From Anaerolineales bacterium (GTDB lineage Bacteria > Chloroflexota > Anaerolineae > Anaerolineales > UBA4823): 13,717 nucleotides of DNA. Of this stretch, positions 2,221-13,717 are shown one piece after another (position 1 is the stretch's first letter; the number at the start of each line of letters is the position of its first letter). A model generated the notes under the pieces. The model was given only the letters and a program-made list of their open reading frames with translations, made no database searches and had not been told where the DNA came from. The position numbers were made by a program, and so were the translations under genes. Location of the stretch: NCBI GenBank assembly GCA_022865865.1, contig JALHTN010000301.1, forward strand, positions 1-13,717. Reading direction: 5' to 3'.

Positions 2221-2599
2221 CCACAGGCCGGCTGAGTGGTCGCGGTTCTGCTTGCCAGAGCCGAGGAAAGTCCGCACTCCACAGAGCACTTTGCCGGGTA
2301 ACTCCCGGGGCGGGGCAACCTGCCGCATAGGGCCGCAGAAACATACCGCCGGTTTCCGGTAAGGGTGAAAAGGTGGTGTAAGAGACCACCGGCGTCCTCA
2401 GCAATGAGGGCGGCCAGGCAACCTCCAAAGGGAGCAAGGCCAAGCAGGGACCAGAGGCTGCTCGCCTCACTTCCCCAGCAATGGGGATGTAATCCCGGGT
2501 AGGCTGCAAGAGCTGCAAGGAGACCTGCAGCCCAGATAGATGGCCACTCAGGCGGTTCATACCGCTGGACAGAATGCGGCTTACAGGCTGGTCTGTGGG
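2221..2599 (+). ncRNA. rnpB: RNase P RNA, bacterial class A
   Basis: This is the catalytic RNA of ribonuclease P, which removes 5' leaders from tRNA precursors. The universally conserved P4 5' strand GAGGAAAGTCCG is at 2263-2274. The 3' conserved segment AGAATGCGGCTTACA is at 2571-2585. Between them are GGGTGAAAAGGTG, the GGTGTAAGAGACCACC hairpin, GGAGCAAGGCCAA, and CCCGGGTAGGCTG with the GGU that pairs with the tRNA CCA end. The ends are set by helix P1: CCACAGGCCGGC at 2221-2232 pairs, with G-U wobbles, with GCTGGTCTGTGG ending near 2598. A length of about 380 nt is usual for class A. No U-tract terminator is evident directly downstream. Any leftward reading frame across this stretch is an artefact of the RNA gene. 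Confidence 0.97.
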
Positions 2600-3234: not shown

Positions 3235-4383
3235 CTACAACCGACCCAAATTGAAAGACATAAATTCGTCCCAGCCATAGCGCAGGGGAACCCACCATTC
3301 CTCGCGCCCAATGCAGCGGAAATAAGGCGCTTCCTTGGCTAAAACCAGGTCGCCAATCCGGTAGCGCGGCAGGATAGGAGTGGAGACGATCAGTGAACCT
3401 CGCTCGCCGGGACGCATTTCGTGCAGTAATATTATTTTATTACCCACCTGTACTTCGAAGAAGAACAGGTCGTAATTGGGCACCCAGGCACGTTTTTCAT
3501 CCAGCTGCTGACCAAACATTCCTTCTGTAGCGCCGTAAATCTCCCTGATCACTGCGGGGCCGTACATGGCATTTAAAGCCGGTTGGTACTTGGTATTGAT
3601 GCCTGCCACACTGCCCAGGGTCATGATCTGGGTTTGCCATAAGTCCTTAGGATAGACCTTGTGGTTCTTGTTCAGGTAGCGGCCAAATCGCAGCGCAGTA
3701 GGGCATACCCCTCCCACCAGGGTGACATTTTGCTCCTTGCAGGTTGTATAAGCCAATTCAAAGCGGCGGTTCCAGTCGCTTTCGGTTTTGCCGCCACCCA
3801 GGGCGTCGATCTCATCCTGGGTGGGAGCAGATTTGATGGGTGTGGTTTTGGAAACGAACTTAGTGTAGATGCCGGAGCTGTAGCCGTACTCCACCTGGCG
3901 CTCGCCAACAGAAACCGTACCCACCACGGAGGGGAAATTAAGGTTCAGGTTGACCCCGGCGAATAAATCAAAACGCTGGGATGTCGCCACATAATTCATC
4001 ATCGCCCGGCCTGCGCTGGTGCGCAAGCCCATATCGGTGGGGGTCACGGGGATGAACTTGGATTCACCTTTGGTTGTGCCGCGGGTGATCGCCCACCCGA
4101 TTGGTTCTTCCCACAAAAGCAGGTCGACCTCTCCTGCCATAACCCTCTCGATGATGGCTTTGTAATCGTCATCATAAGTGGCTACCGGGAAGGCGCGCTG
4201 GTAATCTTCCAGCGTCTCGATATTCCCAGCCCCATGATCCTGACCGTACTTTGTCTTGGCATAATCGACGATCAGGTTATGAAGGACCGCATCTTGGGCG
4301 GATGCGGGATCGGCGATTGAGCGATGCCAGGGTTCCAAAAAAGATTGGAGCAGCTGTGCTCCACTTTGAGGATCGATATTCAT
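3235..4383 (-). CDS. GH3-family adenylate-forming enzyme, short form
   Basis: GH3 proteins belong to the acyl-adenylate-forming superfamily and activate carboxylic acids with ATP; plant members conjugate hormones such as auxin to amino acids. Three nucleotide-binding motifs are visible: TRGTTKGESK (residues 100-109, the P-loop), YGATEG (283-288) and YRIGDLV (341-347). The start at 4383 is chosen because AGGAGG lies six bases upstream, which is better than any ATG further upstream. The product is 382 residues. Full GH3 proteins are usually about 500-600, and here only about 35 residues follow the YRIGD motif, so the C-terminal lid domain that completes the active site is missing. The stop lies 2 bp from a convergent gene, which leaves no room for a frameshifted remainder. 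The bacterial substrate is unknown. A divergent acyltransferase gene starts 171 bp away, hinting at lipid or acyl metabolism. Confidence 0.8.
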   Translation of the reverse strand: MNIDPQSGAQLLQSFLEPWHRSIADPASAQDAVLHNLIVDYAKTKYGQDHGAGNIETLEDYQRAFPVATYDDDYKAIIERVMAGEVDLLLWEEPIGWAITRGTTKGESKFIPVTPTDMGLRTSAGRAMMNYVATSQRFDLFAGVNLNLNFPSVVGTVSVGERQVEYGYSSGIYTKFVSKTTPIKSAPTQDEIDALGGGKTESDWNRRFELAYTTCKEQNVTLVGGVCPTALRFGRYLNKNHKVYPKDLWQTQIMTLGSVAGINTKYQPALNAMYGPAVIREIYGATEGMFGQQLDEKRAWVPNYDLFFFEVQVGNKIILLHEMRPGERGSLIVSTPILPRYRIGDLVLAKEAPYFRCIGREEWWVPLRYGWDEFMSFNLGRL

Positions 4384-4422
4384 GACTGACCTCCTAGGAT
4401 GTGTCGTAGATCTAACTACTCC

Positions 4423-4451
4423 ATTGTATAGTCGATTCGCCAATGGGGCAA
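4423..4451 (-). promoter_or_regulatory. Promoter of the GH3-family gene
   Basis: On the minus strand TTGCCC (4451-4446) and TACAAT (4428-4423) are separated by 17 bp. The predicted transcription start is near 4416, giving a leader of about 33 nt with AGGAGG at 4395-4390 before the ATG at 4383. Confidence 0.55.
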
Positions 4452-4513
4452 GAATTTGGTGATCGTTCAACAGCAATATTTTTGTTTAGATCGCGCTTTG
4501 CTTTCCTAGGATT

Positions 4514-4522
4514 TGATATACT
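4514..4522 (+). promoter_or_regulatory. Extended -10 promoter of the plsC-like gene
   Basis: TGATATACT is a TGn-extended -10 with hexamer TATACT at 4517-4522. No good -35 is present, as is common for extended -10 promoters. The predicted start near 4529 leaves a leader of about 26 nt containing GAAGGGG. Confidence 0.5.
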
Positions 4523-4554
4523 AAGCCAGTCCAACCCATTTGAAGGGGTAGGTG

Positions 4555-5244
4555 ATGATCGATCGCATCGTTCGTTTTCTTAATCGAATGTTGGTCAAAG
4601 CAATCCTGGATATCAAGTTTTACAATTTGGATTCACAACCCAGGGAGGGGGCATTGATTGTGGCTGGAAATCACCTGGGCGTGTTGGATGCCTTGATGGT
4701 CTTTTCTGTGATCGATAAGCGGGATTACATCGTCATGGTGGCGGAATATCACAAGAACTATGCTTTCCGCCGCTGGCTCGGAAAAATTGTAGGTGCCATC
4801 TTTGTAGATCGGTACCAGGCCGATTTCGCTGCCCTGAGAGAAGTGATGAAGCGTCTCAACCAAGGGGGGGTTTTGATCATCTCTCCCGAGGGTACGCGCA
4901 GCAAAACTGGCGGGCTCCTTCCTGGACAACCTGGGACTGCTTACCTGGCTTCAAAAACCGGCATCTCGGTGCTGCCGGTGAGCATCGTAGGAAGCGAAGA
5001 TCGATTGATTTTGGCAAATCTGAAGCGCTTGAGACGTTCTCCGGTGAAGGTTGTGTTCGGCGAAGCGATCAGATTTGCACCTGTCTCGAGGGAAGGAAGG
5101 GAACAGGCCCTGCAGGGCTATACCGACGAGATCATGTGCCAGATTGCATCCTTACTTCCCGAGGAATACCGCGGTGAATACGCAAACCACCCGCGCTTGA
5201 AGCAGCTGCTAGATGATAAAGCGCTCGAAATGAAGGTGGAATAG
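4555..5244 (+). CDS. plsC: PlsC-type 1-acylglycerol-3-phosphate acyltransferase family protein
   Basis: PlsC-family enzymes transfer a fatty acyl group to lysophosphatidic acid to make phosphatidic acid, at the cytoplasmic face of the membrane. The diagnostic motif I, NHLGVLD, has catalytic His40 and Asp45 (HX4D). Motif II-like AIFVDR is at residues 81-86, and motif III is PEGTRSK (111-117). A hydrophobic stretch with VLPVSIVG follows at about 145-152. At 229 residues it has the family's usual length. ATG 4555 is preferred to the overlapping GTG 4552 because GAAGGGG (4542-4548) is then six bases away. Closely related enzymes acylate other lipids or sugars, so the exact substrate is not settled. 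It is divergent from the GH3-family acyl-adenylating gene, which could be functionally related. Confidence 0.88.
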   Translation: MIDRIVRFLNRMLVKAILDIKFYNLDSQPREGALIVAGNHLGVLDALMVFSVIDKRDYIVMVAEYHKNYAFRRWLGKIVGAIFVDRYQADFAALREVMKRLNQGGVLIISPEGTRSKTGGLLPGQPGTAYLASKTGISVLPVSIVGSEDRLILANLKRLRRSPVKVVFGEAIRFAPVSREGREQALQGYTDEIMCQIASLLPEEYRGEYANHPRLKQLLDDKALEMKVE

Positions 5245-8945: not shown

Positions 8946-11240
8946 TCATCCTTCCAGCAGGTGAGGGGCATTCCACAGAGGTAAGGCGGTATGCGCCGCG
9001 CCGGGCAGCACACCTGGTGGGGCATTGTAGGCGGCATTGCTGAACAGCCACTGGCTGAGCAGCTGCTTGCTGACCCCGAATGGTTCCAGCAGGGTGGTGG
9101 CCGCGCGCAGCAGCAGCTCGCTGTAGCGATCCACATCCACACTGGCTGGGTCCGGGGGTTGGGGCAGGTTCCAGGCATAGACTCCCGGCTCGCCACGCGT
9201 ATACAGGTATCTAACACGCTCACCAGGGCTGGTAGACTTGCCCGCAGCCTGCAGCTGCGCCGCGGCATGTGCCACGGGGGAAGGGTTGCGGAATTCGTCC
9301 AGGGCGCGGCTGAGTTTTTGAGCAACCAGCATCTGCTCCAGAGGCAAACGCCCCGCACGCAGCGCGGCCAGATTGCGGCGCAGCAGGGCCAGCACACCAG
9401 GCAGATAGTTATCTGCTGGTGTATCCCGAGAGACGTGCGCCAGTTTGGCAAGCATCTCAGCCTGTAATTGGTTGATAAAGGCGGGCGTATCCCGCCGCCT
9501 GGCTTCGATGCCGCGTACTTTGACTGAGCCATCCTGGAAAATCCCGAAATAGCGATTAGCAACCGGCACGCGTGCATCCTGGCGAGACGATAAAAATGCC
9601 ATCCAGCGGTAAATGCCCTCCAGTGCGATGGGCAAACCGGTGCGCTGGCTGATGGCCTCCAGCACCGGCTGGAAATCGAGAACCTGGGAGGCACCGGGCC
9701 TGGCGACCCACATGCCGTCTACGTAGAGATGCAGCACCTCAAACCCCAGGTCTTCGGCAGCCTCTTTGGCACGCAGGAGCGCTTCCCGCCCGTAAGCGGT
9801 GACTGCCTCGTGGGCTTCGATGCGCCCGAAGCGGGCGTTCTTGTAGCCCAGGTAGCCAAAACAGGTGACCAGGAGCCATTTGTGGGCTGAGGCGCGCGCC
9901 TGGTAGATTTTGCGTTGGGGATGCCAGGCTGGCAGAGTCGCCAGGCTGGTCTTAAGGGCGAGACGCTTCTCAAGCAGTGGGGCCAGGGTTTGCGGCACCA
10001 GGCCCTGAGGCTGCGGGTCACCGGGGAAAGCGAGCTCAGGTGCCGCGTCTGCGATTGCCCGGCTGGAGCCGACCGTCTCCGGGGAGATGTTGAAGTGCAC
10101 CATGATGCTGGGGTACATGGAGATGAAATCGATCTCAGCCACATCGTAGTGCAAACCGATCGTGGGCTGGTAAACCAGGCCGCCCTGATCAGAACGCATC
10201 AGATCTAAGATGGATTTTGGGCGCTCTGCCTGCTGCTTGTGCCAGGGCACCAGGATTCCCTGGCGCAGAGCAGTCAGCATTTGCATCGCGGAAATACCGC
10301 TGCCGGGAGAAACACGAGCTACGGTTTGCACTGGCAAGGAGGTGACGCGCGCTAATTCGTAAATGCCGTGCATCCCGTAGTCATGGAAGAGCATGGCGTT
10401 ATATCTGTCGATATGCCAGCGACCGAAGAGCAGCACCTGGCGCCCCTGGTGAACCACCTGCCCGTAAGAGAAGTAAGTACGCTCAGGTTTGTGAGCGGGG
10501 GCCAGGCCAGGTTCGCGATTGAAAGGTAGAGCCAGATTGGCCTGGCTGGAAAGATCAAGCAGGTGGGGCATCAGCCAGGTATCGCCCCAGGAGGTGAGCA
10601 GCAGGTCAGGATCGTGTCGATTGATAATGGAACGCAGCCCAACCAACAAGGGGCGCACGGGTTCCAACGGCAGACGGTATGTAAAGCGCTCGAAGCGCAG
10701 GCGCAGGTGGGTGGGGGAGGCGTGTGCCGGATCGCTGTCGGGTTCGAGGTCCAGAATGCGCAGGGAAGGAGGAGCGGGGTCCAGTTTCCAGGGTAAATCA
10801 AGCGCGCTGATCTCTTCCACATCTCCAGTGTCGCTGACCCGCACCCGGCAGCGGGCAAGGGGAAAGACATGATGAACTGCCGCATAGCGCAGGGAGAGCT
10901 TTACATCAGCATCGTAATAAGTCAGTTCGGGGAAGCGCTTGGCTACCCGCTGAAAGAGGCGCGGCTGGCGTATGGGCTGAGCGACCTGAATGGCCAGCAG
11001 GCTGAGCGGCTGCGCCTGGAATAGATCGCGGCGTTCTGTCCTGGATAGAGTCAGCGGAACGGGCTGGTTCTCCAGGAAACGCCACAGGTCACGCAGGCGC
11101 GCTGGGGGTCCAGCCGCATAGAAGGTGATCGGGAAAGGCTGCTGAAAACGGTAGCGCCCGCCATCATCCCCCAGCAGCCAGAGGACCACCCCGCCCTGCG
11201 GGTCAGCAAACAGATCAAGCAGCCAGCCGGTGTGTTGCAT
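8946..11240 (-). CDS. Divergent family B DNA polymerase (PolB2/Dpo2-like candidate)
   Basis: The 764-residue protein has the layout of a family B polymerase: an N-terminal domain, a 3'-5' exonuclease-like domain (about 155-330) and a polymerase domain. Polymerase motif A, DFISMYPSI, has Asp371. Motif B, KWLLVTCFGYLGY, starts at Lys454. The KVRGIEARRRD region is also recognisable. Motif C normally reads YxDTDS but here reads YVDGMW (506-511). Asp508 is kept, but the second, metal-binding Asp is Met510. In the exonuclease part, exo I keeps DLE (Asp164, Glu166). Exo II, DPDLLLTSWGDTWLMPHLL from 210, lacks the Asn and Asp of GYNxxxFD, and I find no exo III YxxxD. The frame is intact, so this is not simple decay. 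The start at 11240 is fixed by AAGGA about five bases upstream. The promoter holds an SOS-box-like palindrome, suggesting induction by DNA damage. It may be catalytically altered or have a structural or translesion role. Confidence 0.9.
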   Translation of the reverse strand: MQHTGWLLDLFADPQGGVVLWLLGDDGGRYRFQQPFPITFYAAGPPARLRDLWRFLENQPVPLTLSRTERRDLFQAQPLSLLAIQVAQPIRQPRLFQRVAKRFPELTYYDADVKLSLRYAAVHHVFPLARCRVRVSDTGDVEEISALDLPWKLDPAPPSLRILDLEPDSDPAHASPTHLRLRFERFTYRLPLEPVRPLLVGLRSIINRHDPDLLLTSWGDTWLMPHLLDLSSQANLALPFNREPGLAPAHKPERTYFSYGQVVHQGRQVLLFGRWHIDRYNAMLFHDYGMHGIYELARVTSLPVQTVARVSPGSGISAMQMLTALRQGILVPWHKQQAERPKSILDLMRSDQGGLVYQPTIGLHYDVAEIDFISMYPSIMVHFNISPETVGSSRAIADAAPELAFPGDPQPQGLVPQTLAPLLEKRLALKTSLATLPAWHPQRKIYQARASAHKWLLVTCFGYLGYKNARFGRIEAHEAVTAYGREALLRAKEAAEDLGFEVLHLYVDGMWVARPGASQVLDFQPVLEAISQRTGLPIALEGIYRWMAFLSSRQDARVPVANRYFGIFQDGSVKVRGIEARRRDTPAFINQLQAEMLAKLAHVSRDTPADNYLPGVLALLRRNLAALRAGRLPLEQMLVAQKLSRALDEFRNPSPVAHAAAQLQAAGKSTSPGERVRYLYTRGEPGVYAWNLPQPPDPASVDVDRYSELLLRAATTLLEPFGVSKQLLSQWLFSNAAYNAPPGVLPGAAHTALPLWNAPHLLEG

Positions 11241-11273: not shown

Positions 11274-11302
11274 ATTATAAAATAGAACAAGTGTTCTGTA
11301 CA
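11274..11302 (-). promoter_or_regulatory. Promoter of the family B polymerase gene
   Basis: On the minus strand TGTACA (11302-11297) and a perfect TATAAT (11279-11274) are separated by 17 bp. The predicted start near 11267 leaves a leader of about 27 nt that contains the AAGGA ribosome binding site. Confidence 0.7.
11284..11297. promoter_or_regulatory. Candidate LexA (SOS) box overlapping the polymerase promoter
   Basis: The palindrome AGAACAAGTGTTCT has perfect 6-bp arms around a 2-bp centre. It contains GAAC-AAGT-GTTC, matching the core of the LexA box known from Bacillus and other Gram-positive bacteria (GAAC, four bases RNRY, GTTC). It sits between the -35 and -10 of the polymerase promoter, where a bound repressor would block RNA polymerase. 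About 40 bp separate it from the -35 of the divergent transglycosylase gene. LexA binding itself is inferred. Confidence 0.65.
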
Positions 11303-11372: not shown

Positions 11373-13717
11373 GTGGACAAAGTTAGAATTTGCATCCTTT
11401 TTTTGGTCCTGCTGGTGGGAATTGGGGCGTGCAGTTTGCCTGCCTGGTCAGCGGATCAAACTACGCCGCAGCCGCCAGCAAGTTCGTCTCCAGTGCCCAC
11501 GTTGCTGCCGACGAATACGCCTCTGCCTACAGCAACACCAACGCCGCTCCCATTTGTGCGAGTTGAGATGGGTGACCGGGCTATCTTTCTTGGTGATTGG
11601 GAAAGTGCTTTGACGGAATTTCGGCATGCCCTGGAGACCAGCCCGGATGAAGAAGTGCAGTTTGCTGCTCGTTTGGGAATCGCGCGCACTAATTTCCTGG
11701 CTGGGGAGCTGCTTAAAGCACAGGATCAGCTGGAGGCGTTGATCTCCCCGGGCAGCGAACTTCCGCAGCTGGCGGAGGTGTATTTTGTGTTAGGGCAGGT
11801 ATATGAAGCGCAAGGGGATTATCCTGCCGCAGCGGAGGAGTATGCAAAATACCTTGATCTGCGTCCTGGAGTAATCGACAGCTATGTGAGCGAGTTGCGT
11901 GGGGATGTACTCAGCGCGGCTGGGGATTACCAGGGTGCCATCGCGGCATACCAGGCTGCTCTGGGAGCGCCCCGTTTGGATTCCAGCTTGGATATCGAAT
12001 TTAAGATGGCGCAAGCCTATGATTTCTCAGGGGAACTGGCGACAGCTATTGTGGCATATGAGGATCTTTATTCCCGTACTGCAAATGATTATATGCGCGC
12101 TCAATTGGATTATTTGATTGGTCAGGCGTACATCTCCATTGGGGAAACTGAGCTGGCGCAAGCTGCATATCTGGACGCAGTAATGAACTACCCACTTTCC
12201 TACGATTCTTACTTAGCACTGGTGGATTTGGTTGAGGCCGGGGTGCTCGTGGACGAGCTGCAGAGAGGTTTGGTGGACTATTATGCAGCACAATATGCGG
12301 TAGCAATTGCTGCCTTCGACCGTACTATTCAGGCTGGCTCACCAGATATCGCCACAGCGATGTATTACAAAGGCCTGTCACAAAGTGCTCTTGGAGATCA
12401 CCAGGCTGCTCTGGATATTTGGGGTGAAATCATTCAATCCCATCCCGAAGCTGAAGTCTGGGATGATGCCTGGGAACAAACTGGAGAAGTATTATGGTTC
12501 CAGATGGGGGAATATCGTGATGCGACTCAAGTTCTTCTGGATTTCGTCGACCAGTTTCCTGCTCATCCCCGGGCAGCAGAGTTTCTTTTCCAGGCTGCCA
12601 GGATCGCAGAGCGCGGTGACCAGCTGGACCAGGCCGCCATAATATGGGCGCGAATTGTGTCCGAATACCCAGGATCTGAGCTGGCTGAAGAGGCTCTTCA
12701 CCTGGCTGGCATCACCCGATATCGGCTGGCAGATTATGTGGCTACGGAAAAGCTCTTCCAGAAGCTTTTAGCGTTTTCTACAGATATAGAAATACGCTCA
12801 GCAGCCTATTTCTGGATTGGTAAGTCAAGAAGTGCCATAGGTCAGGAAGAGGCTGCGAATGCTGCCTGGGAACAGGCAGTGTTGATCGATCCGACCGGTT
12901 ATTACAGCGAACGCGCAGGGGATCTCCTGGCCGAGATCGAACCGTTCACGCTGCCTCTAGAATACGATCTATCCATTGATTTAGATTCTGAGCAACAAGA
13001 GGCAGAAGAATGGATGCGGACGATATTCGGATTGCCAGAAGAAACGAACTTATCCAGCCCGGGGTCTCTTGCTGGAGATGTGAGATTCCAGCGAGGTAAC
13101 GAGTTCTTGCGCTTAGGGTTATATGAAGCTGCCAGAGCTGAATTTGAGGATTTGCGCTTATCGGTTGAAGCTGATCCAGCGAATTCTTACCGGTTAGCTA
13201 ATCACTTGTTGGAAAAAGGACTTTACAGGACAGCGATCTTTGCTGCCAGGCAGGTGCTTGACCAGGTTGGTATGGATGATGCTGAGACAATGAGAGCGCC
13301 AGTCTATTTCAATCATACCCGCTTCGGACCGTATTACCGGGAGCTGGTCATGCCAGCAAGCCAGGAATACAATTTTCACCCCTTGTTTTTGTTCAGTGTT
13401 ATGCGGCAGGAAAGTTTGTTCGAAGGTTTTGTGCGCTCCTCTGCTGGAGCGCGGGGATTGATGCAGATCATCCCCAGCACCGGTCGTGAAATTGCCGCGA
13501 ATGCTGATTGGCCTCCCAATTATACGGATGAGGACCTTTATCGACCGCTGGTGAGCATCAATTTGGGCAGCGATTACCTAAATCGACAACGGGGGTTTAT
13601 GAGCGGTGATCTTTACGGAGCACTAGCAGCTTATAATGGCGGTCCAGGTAACGCGATGACCTGGAAGAATCTGGTGCCGCCTGATCCGGATTTGTATGTC
13701 GAAGTGATCCGCTTCGA
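11373..13717 (+). CDS. Lipoprotein lytic transglycosylase with TPR-rich N-terminal region (3' end cut by window)
   Basis: Lytic transglycosylases cleave the MurNAc-GlcNAc bond of peptidoglycan, forming 1,6-anhydro ends. The frame is open from GTG 11373 to the window end (781 codons, stop not reached). The N-terminus has Lys3 and Arg5, a hydrophobic core and the lipobox GIGAC with Cys20, so it is probably an envelope lipoprotein. A Pro/Thr-rich linker (PTNTPLPTATPTPLP) lies near residues 48-62. Helical repeats of TPR type (for example GDYPAAAEEYAKYL) fill about 65-640, resembling the superhelical part of Slt70. The SLT domain begins near 665. It has MRQES with catalytic Glu680, SSAGARGLMQIIPSTG, SINLGSDYL and AYNGG at 753-757. 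The gene has a strong TTGACA/TATAGT promoter, no Shine-Dalgarno sequence, and a start within two bases of the predicted RNA 5' end. It is divergent from the polymerase gene. Confidence 0.92.
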   Translation, partial: MDKVRICILFLVLLVGIGACSLPAWSADQTTPQPPASSSPVPTLLPTNTPLPTATPTPLPFVRVEMGDRAIFLGDWESALTEFRHALETSPDEEVQFAARLGIARTNFLAGELLKAQDQLEALISPGSELPQLAEVYFVLGQVYEAQGDYPAAAEEYAKYLDLRPGVIDSYVSELRGDVLSAAGDYQGAIAAYQAALGAPRLDSSLDIEFKMAQAYDFSGELATAIVAYEDLYSRTANDYMRAQLDYLIGQAYISIGETELAQAAYLDAVMNYPLSYDSYLALVDLVEAGVLVDELQRGLVDYYAAQYAVAIAAFDRTIQAGSPDIATAMYYKGLSQSALGDHQAALDIWGEIIQSHPEAEVWDDAWEQTGEVLWFQMGEYRDATQVLLDFVDQFPAHPRAAEFLFQAARIAERGDQLDQAAIIWARIVSEYPGSELAEEALHLAGITRYRLADYVATEKLFQKLLAFSTDIEIRSAAYFWIGKSRSAIGQEEAANAAWEQAVLIDPTGYYSERAGDLLAEIEPFTLPLEYDLSIDLDSEQQEAEEWMRTIFGLPEETNLSSPGSLAGDVRFQRGNEFLRLGLYEAARAEFEDLRLSVEADPANSYRLANHLLEKGLYRTAIFAARQVLDQVGMDDAETMRAPVYFNHTRFGPYYRELVMPASQEYNFHPLFLFSVMRQESLFEGFVRSSAGARGLMQIIPSTGREIAANADWPPNYTDEDLYRPLVSINLGSDYLNRQRGFMSGDLYGALAAYNGGPGNAMTWKNLVPPDPDLYVEVIRF

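What the first reader, a model, noticed from the sequence alone, without database searches (positions are those of the whole stretch)
8946..11240. Family B polymerase with the second motif C aspartate replaced and a partly eroded exonuclease
Motif C reads YVDGMW instead of YxDTDS, so the usually essential second Asp is Met510. Motif A (Asp371) and motif B (Lys454) are well conserved. Exo I DLE is kept, but exo II has lost its Asn and Asp and exo III is not visible. Selective change in a full-length intact frame suggests a distinct subfamily rather than a decaying gene. A family of B polymerases with altered catalytic residues (PolB2/Dpo2) is known from archaea and reported sporadically in bacteria; this protein may belong to it.
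Basis: partly seen in the sequence, partly recalled or inferred. Interest (0 to 1): 0.75.

Follow-up and report, generated by a model that had tools for sequence, protein, structure and literature searches.

The report
Relocated SOS-controlled PolB2 DNA polymerase
This gene encodes a bacterial PolB2, a known kind of damage-bypass DNA polymerase, but in this group of Chloroflexota it stands apart from its usual partner genes while carrying its own SOS-type control site.

Summary
The gene is real and intact (minus strand, 8946-11240, 764 aa). Loss of the first Asp within HxxxD is the published PolB2/Dpo2 signature. So the guess "PolB2" is right and "second Asp lost" is wrong. The exonuclease site is disrupted. 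It is a bacterial (G2) PolB2 of Anaerolineales, most likely an active extender polymerase for translesion synthesis.

The context is less ordinary. In 22 of 24 class genomes holding the partner gene PPB2, polB2 lies beside it, usually as [box]-LuxR-type HTH-iRadA-PPB2-polB2. In the window and its two closest named relatives polB2 stands alone; in both relatives' genomes LuxR-iRadA-PPB2 lies elsewhere. Each unit has a GAAC-N4-GTTC box in its promoter, the type also found before lexA in 23 of 25 genomes. This looks like a PolB2 mutasome split into two LexA-controlled units. The window's own genome is not held, so its partner genes could not be checked.

The parts
8946..11240 (-). polB2, bacterial PolB2 (G2) catalytic subunit, 764 aa, ATG at 11240
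9708..9731 (-). motif C codons 504-511 HLYVDGMW: first Asp replaced by Tyr506, second Asp kept as Asp508
   Evidence: coordinates by arithmetic from the ATG
10101..10130 (-). motif A codons 371-380, catalytic Asp371
   Evidence: coordinates by arithmetic
9837..9881 (-). motif B region, codons 454-468, Lys454
   Evidence: coordinates by arithmetic
10737..10745 (-). remnant of exo I, codons 166-168 (E166, D168)
   Evidence: coordinates by arithmetic
10566..10592 (-). remnant of exo II, codons 217-225, Asn and Asp replaced by Trp218 and Leu223
   Evidence: coordinates by arithmetic
10404..10409 (-). codons 278-279 Asp-Arg, candidate for the published D(K/R) motif that contacts PPB2 in models
   Evidence: not discriminating in this alignment
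11284..11297 (.). palindromic AGAAC-N4-GTTCT box, putative LexA operator of polB2
11274..11279 (-). TATAAT, putative -10 element of polB2 next to the box
11373..13717 (+). divergent lipoprotein-like gene with TPR repeats and an SLT transglycosylase domain, cut by the window end; it stands where relatives have PPB2 and iRadA

Best explanation
The gene encodes the catalytic subunit of a bacterial PolB2 (G2) translesion mutasome. Shown here: motif A Asp371 and motif C Asp508, the metal-binding pair by homology, are kept; the first motif C Asp is Tyr506 within the PolB2 signature HxxxD; the proofreading site is disrupted. Inferred from archaeal Dpo2: it extends mismatched or lesion-opposite primer ends without proofreading. 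Shown: in most related genomes that hold PPB2, polB2 follows iRadA and PPB2, usually behind a LuxR-type HTH gene and a GAAC-N4-GTTC box. In the window's clade polB2 stands alone; in the two relatives whose genomes could be searched the LuxR-iRadA-PPB2 unit lies elsewhere and both units carry the box. Inferred: the box is a LexA operator, so DNA damage induces both units together and the PolB2-iRadA-PPB2 complex assembles in trans.
For: Motif C register and conservation: Asp at 508 in 160 of 162 rows, His at 504 in 158 of 162, Asp at 506 only in E. coli Pol II. PolB2 signature and meaning of the two Asp: PMC8764526 Discussion and PMC11791011 Results. NCBIfam best hits NF004416 and NF004418, as for a Halorubrum polymerase that follows an MGRT-type PPB2 (E=7e-21) and an iRadA match. 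Fold: AF2 model pLDDT 86.8, PDB matches to B polymerases. Context: PPB2 with polB2 beside it in 22 of 24 class genomes; LuxR-type gene in 22 and iRadA in 25 of 27 class loci. iRadA modelled with a RAD51/RadA fold and without Walker A. Split shown in the genomes of L001 and L002. Box in 3 of 3 split polB2 promoters (0.01 expected), 20 of 27 class loci (0.12 expected), before lexA in 23 of 25 genomes; the 14-base form only 4 times in 4.5 Mb, control 0.
Against: The window's own genome is not held, so iRadA and PPB2 were not seen for this species. No assay of activity, induction, LexA binding or assembly exists for it. The looser GAAC-N4-GTTC is not enriched genome-wide in the L001 genome (40 against 65 for the reversed control); 7 of 27 class loci (one with almost no upstream sequence) and 5 of 8 named loci showed no box within 300 bases; recA of the L001 genome has none, and no convincing LexA was found in the L002 draft. 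One relative, P0011, has Gly at 508. The polymerase scores below the curated NCBIfam cut-offs.
Confidence: 0.83

Rival explanations
1. One reading: a B polymerase that has lost the essential second motif C Asp (Met510), hence a catalytically altered or dead subfamily.
For: Only the raw letters YVDGMW when read with Y as the Tyr of YxDTDS.
Against: Sequence alignments to solved enzymes and to E. coli Pol II put Asp508 on the second Asp.
Confidence: 0.03
2. Canonical bacterial DNA polymerase II (G1).
For: Some sources name relatives 'DNA polymerase II' or 'DNA polymerase-2'.
Against: The Pol II equivalog models score at most 48.8 bits against cut-offs of 570 to 1435; no DTD, exo II and III lost; E. 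coli Pol II lies on a very long separate branch.
Confidence: 0.01
3. PolB2 works alone in this clade: after leaving the operon it no longer needs iRadA and PPB2, and the partner unit elsewhere is a leftover or has another job.
For: Isolated archaeal Dpo2 is active in vitro (PMC8764526). polB2 stands alone in the window, L001 and L002.
Against: In both genomes that could be searched the partner unit is open and headed by the same kind of box; PPB2 keeps the MGRT start there.
Confidence: 0.1
4. The box is the operator of the LuxR-type HTH protein rather than of LexA, giving a damage response of its own.
For: The box lies just upstream of the LuxR-type gene in most class loci and beside a LuxR-type paralogue in the L001 genome.
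Against: A box of this type precedes lexA in 23 of 25 genomes, occurs before an operon in which no LuxR-type gene was detected (L109), and has the LexA motif of Gram-positive bacteria (PMC3323433 passage).
Confidence: 0.15

Closest known systems
Bacterial PolB2 (G2) mutasome iRadA-PPB2-PolB2 (PMC11791011; also PMC4104785)
   Same: Polymerase signature, disrupted exonuclease, partner genes in relatives, link with LexA.
   Different: polB2 is not beside its partners in this clade, whereas the paper describes for bacteria only the order iRadA-PPB2-PolB2; a LuxR-type HTH gene precedes iRadA in 22 of 27 class loci; Tyr rather than Ile or Leu in place of the first Asp in the relatives nearest to the window.
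Sulfolobus Dpo2 (archaeal PolB2; PMC8764526)
   Same: HxxxD motif C, no working exonuclease expected, extender role inferred.
   Different: Archaeal, different residue (Ile) for the first Asp, regulation not by LexA; activity shown there, not here.
E. coli DNA polymerase II
   Same: Bacterial B-family polymerase fold.
   Different: DTD and complete exo motifs; different family models.
Pol V mutasome and eukaryotic Pol zeta (work-alikes)
   Same: Damage-induced multi-subunit translesion polymerases; Pol zeta is also a B-family extender (PMC11791011 Discussion).
   Different: Other subunits, Pol V is Y-family; an analogy of function, not membership.

Membership tests
PolB2 (bacterial G2) | motif C HxxxD: first Asp substituted, second Asp kept | tested here: met
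   H504, Y506, D508; family-wide; signature from PMC8764526
PolB2 (bacterial G2) | 3'-5' exonuclease motifs disrupted | tested here: met
   exo II Asn and Asp replaced by W218 and L223, exo III opposite a gap, exo I acids are E166 and D168
PolB2 (bacterial G2) | conserved D(K/R) motif in the loop that contacts PPB2 | tested here: inconclusive
   D278-R279; Asp in 161 of 162 rows, K or R next in 93 of 162; but E. coli Pol II also shows D-R at these columns, in a gapped stretch
PolB2 (bacterial G2) | gene beside iRadA and PPB2 | tested here: not met
   absent at the window, L001 and L002 loci; present in L003-L010 and 22 of 24 class genomes with PPB2; in the L001 and L002 genomes the partners lie elsewhere. 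Read as a moved gene, not as failure of the polymerase to be PolB2
PolB2 (bacterial G2) | iRadA and PPB2 encoded in the same genome | not testable with these tools
   no genome held for the window; met in the genomes of the two nearest named relatives
PolB2 (bacterial G2) | groups with PolB2 and not with Pol II | tested here: met
   52-row tree and NCBIfam scores; archaeal PolB1 and PolB3 not included, deep order unsure
PolB2 (bacterial G2) | extender polymerase activity without proofreading; induction by DNA damage | not testable with these tools
   needs experiments; a LexA-type box is present
DNA polymerase II (G1) | YxDTDS motif C and complete exonuclease motifs | tested here: not met
DNA polymerase II (G1) | score above the curated cut-off of a Pol II model | tested here: not met
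   48.8, 29.2 and 24.5 bits against 570, 1435 and 1103

The most novel reading that the evidence does not exclude
A B-family translesion mutasome split into two distant LexA-controlled units (solo polB2; LuxR-type HTH-iRadA-PPB2), with the HTH protein as a so far unreported fourth, conserved member of the Chloroflexota mutasome locus, and with Tyr in the place of the first catalytic Asp as a lineage-specific active-site variant.
Probability: 0.6. Interest if true: 0.5.

Novelty: new variant of a known kind. Interest (0 to 1): 0.42.

Why it matters
That PolB2, iRadA and PPB2 act as one complex rests so far on gene linkage, co-induction, fusions and models (PMC11791011 Discussion). A lineage in which the linkage is broken while a shared promoter box is kept is a natural test: co-regulation kept without co-location argues for joint action. 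It also offers a LexA-type operator as a handle to measure induction. Correcting which motif C Asp is missing matters, because it decides whether the enzyme is expected to be active. The Tyr variant makes the open question of how PolB2 works without the first Asp testable.

Tried and rejected
Loss of the second Asp: rejected by alignment. Lone mutation or decaying gene: rejected, the relatives share the change. Pol II: rejected. A missed PPB2 frame beside the window polB2: none found by MGRT-like motif or profile. A second PolB in the L001 genome: none (its two matches are pieces of this one gene). The LuxR-type protein as owner of the box: kept as a rival. The C-terminal QWLF of PolB2 as a beta-clamp motif: the Q is not conserved and the model makes the stretch helical, so not claimed. 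D(K/R) as a discriminating feature: dropped to inconclusive. Pfam gave no family for iRadA and only a match far under its cut-off for PPB2; the iRadA fold was shown by model and fold search instead.

Literature: (Anaerolineae, family B polymerase, translesion) listed 0 papers; (any two of PolB2, bacteria, iRadA, LuxR) listed 20 of 4,253 papers, of which only PMC11791011 holds PolB2 and it has no LuxR; (PolB2, operon, bacteria, lexA) listed 3. Of PMC11791011 I saw the outline, abstract, introduction and first methods, Results parts 1 and 2 of 3, the Discussion and a term search of the main text; Results part 3 and the supplements were not seen. Of PMC8764526: passages, one Results section and the Discussion. 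Of PMC4104785, PMC12926913 and PMC3323433: passages only. That the split and the HTH gene are unreported rests on these alone.

Full report
What is there. The frame at 8946-11240 lies on the minus strand and encodes 764 residues from an ATG at 11240. Pfam gives DNA_pol_B (E=1.9e-28), and the closest solved relatives by sequence are archaeal B polymerases. An AlphaFold2 model from 43 sequences has mean pLDDT 86.8 and pTM 0.84; the 50 PDB matches listed of 1193 are family B polymerases or engineered variants of them, first Pyrobaculum 5mdn (E=1.1e-37).

Motif C. HMMER alignments with 5mdn and the Pyrococcus enzyme put YVD of LHLYVDGMWV on DTD. In a 162-row alignment (121 proteins with the query, 39 locus translations, some of them the same genes with other ends, Halorubrum PolB2 and E. 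coli Pol II) Y506-V507-D508 fall on E. coli D-T-D. Position 508 is Asp in 160 of 162 rows, with one Gly (P0011) and one gap (L117, cut by a contig end). Position 506 is Tyr in 144, Ile in 8, Leu in 6, Ser in 1, Asn in 1, one gap, and Asp only in E. coli. The listed proteins are the 120 best of 6161, so Tyr is over-represented. PMC8764526 (Discussion) states that YxDTD becomes HxxxD in PolB2, that the second Asp binds the metal and that the first points away from the centre; here the stretch is H504-L-Y-V-D508, with His at 504 in 158 of 162 rows. PMC11791011 (Results parts 1 and 2) says that most PolB2 have the first Asp substituted.

Exonuclease. The columns of the exo I acids hold E166 and D168, those of exo II Asn and Asp hold W218 and L223, and the exo III stretch of E. 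coli stands opposite a gap. Proofreading is therefore probably absent (inference).

Family. The best NCBIfam models are NF004416 (370 bits) and NF004418 (307), both under their curated cut-offs; the three Pol II equivalog models give 49 bits or less, the broad superfamily model TIGR00592 99 bits, also under its cut-off. A Halorubrum plasmid polymerase scores best on NF004418 and next on NF004416, E. coli Pol II on its own models; the Halorubrum gene follows a PPB2 with the MGRT start (E=7e-21) and an iRadA match (E=5e-10; two-sequence search). In the tree of 52 rows the window, L001 and L002 fall with P0003 and P0008 in a set with 100/99 support, nested among Chloroflexota sequences; E. coli Pol II and Halorubrum are long branches and the deep order is unsure; archaeal PolB1 and PolB3 were not included. 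Two other B polymerases met in the class sample, L088 and L089, read DTD at their motif C (found by pattern).

Neighbourhood of relatives. Ten named loci were found. Eight (L003-L010) have PPB2, with the published MGRT start, and iRadA before polB2; L007, L008 and L009 also have a frame that looks like LexA by eye. In a sample of 298 genomes of the class of the L001 genome PPB2 is found in 24 and PolB2 matches in 29, three of them weak and some of the others fragments. In 22 of the 24 PPB2 and polB2 are neighbours by position. The exceptions are the L001 genome and G205. Profiles built here find a LuxR-type (GerE) HTH gene in 22 and iRadA in 25 of 27 class loci; L116 is cut by a contig end. 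iRadA has no Walker A in 24 of 24 sequences, and its model (pLDDT 88.8) has RAD51, RadA and DMC1 family chains as its 50 listed matches of 1695 (best E=4.4e-8).

The split. In the window, L001 and L002 polB2 is alone, facing a divergent gene with TPR repeats and an SLT domain. In the L001 genome (one 4.5 Mb contig) PPB2 lies at 187784 and polB2 at 4050843, with a LuxR-type gene and iRadA before PPB2. In the L002 genome the same unit lies on another contig. G205 is split differently: LuxR-type gene, iRadA and polB2 together, PPB2 alone on another contig. For the window's own genome this cannot be tested.

The box. AGAACAAGTGTTCT at 11284-11297 is the only AGAAC-N4-GTTCT in the window (0.02 expected; 4 of 200 shuffles had one); TATAAT follows on the minus strand at 11279-11274. 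Within 300 bases upstream GAAC-N4-GTTC is found in 3 of 3 split polB2 promoters (0.01 expected), in 20 of 27 class loci (0.12 expected) and in 3 of 8 named loci (0.02 expected); in L094 it lies between the LuxR-type gene and iRadA and was not counted. In the L001 genome AGAACANNTGTTCT occurs 4 times against 0 for the reversed control: before LuxR-iRadA-PPB2, before polB2, between a second LuxR-type gene and a lamin-tail gene, and beside an SLT gene. The looser GAAC-N4-GTTC is not enriched genome-wide (40 against 65). A box of the looser type lies within 250 bases before lexA in 23 of 25 genomes tested, the L001 genome among them; the exceptions are G272 and the L002 genome, whose weak hit is probably not LexA. 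recA of the L001 genome has none in the stretch fetched. GAAC-N4-GTTC as LexA motif of Gram-positive bacteria: PMC3323433, passage. LexA control is thus well supported but not shown.

Mechanism. Most likely DNA damage relieves LexA repression at two places; PolB2, iRadA and PPB2 are made together and assemble in trans as in the published heteropentamer model (PMC11791011), and PolB2 extends distorted primer ends past lesions as shown for Dpo2 (PMC8764526). Activity, induction and assembly are inferred for this protein.

Verdict. New is the separation of the gene from its partners with a conserved promoter box, and the LuxR-type fourth gene. PMC11791011 describes for bacteria only the adjacent order and does not hold the words LuxR or GerE in its main text; PMC4104785 (passages) already linked bacterial PolB2 operons with lexA.

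Noticed in passing
window 2224-2599, + strand: Complete RNase P RNA, bacterial class A (Rfam RF00010, 257 bits).
   Followed up: no
L012, L091, L093-L095, L097-L107, L111-L115, L117: A small LuxR-type (GerE) HTH protein, often ending in DWDFSAW, is encoded ahead of iRadA in 22 of 27 class loci; in L004 it is in one open frame with iRadA.
   Followed up: partly
L091 2253-5698 and L120 884-1138 (G205): A second, different break-up: polB2 stays with the LuxR-type gene and iRadA, PPB2 sits alone on another contig.
   Followed up: partly
L013 around 1501 (L001 genome): The same AGAACANNTGTTCT box lies between a LuxR-type paralogue and a lamin-tail domain gene.
   Followed up: no
L026 1343-1780 (L001 genome): A GAAC-N4-GTTC box precedes an alkyltransferase-like gene (Pfam DNA_binding_1), another candidate SOS gene.
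   Followed up: no
L102 and L103 (G224); L097, L115, L116 (G248): Some genomes hold two or three PolB2 loci, each with PPB2.
   Followed up: no
iRadA C-termini, alignment A5: Many iRadA end in RLF or RLL, 3 of 24 in QxxLF, like a beta-clamp motif.
   Followed up: no
window 3235-5244: A GH3-family gene (weakly like the lyso-ornithine lipid synthetase model, far below its cut-off) diverges from an acyltransferase gene, possibly a lipid pair.
   Followed up: no
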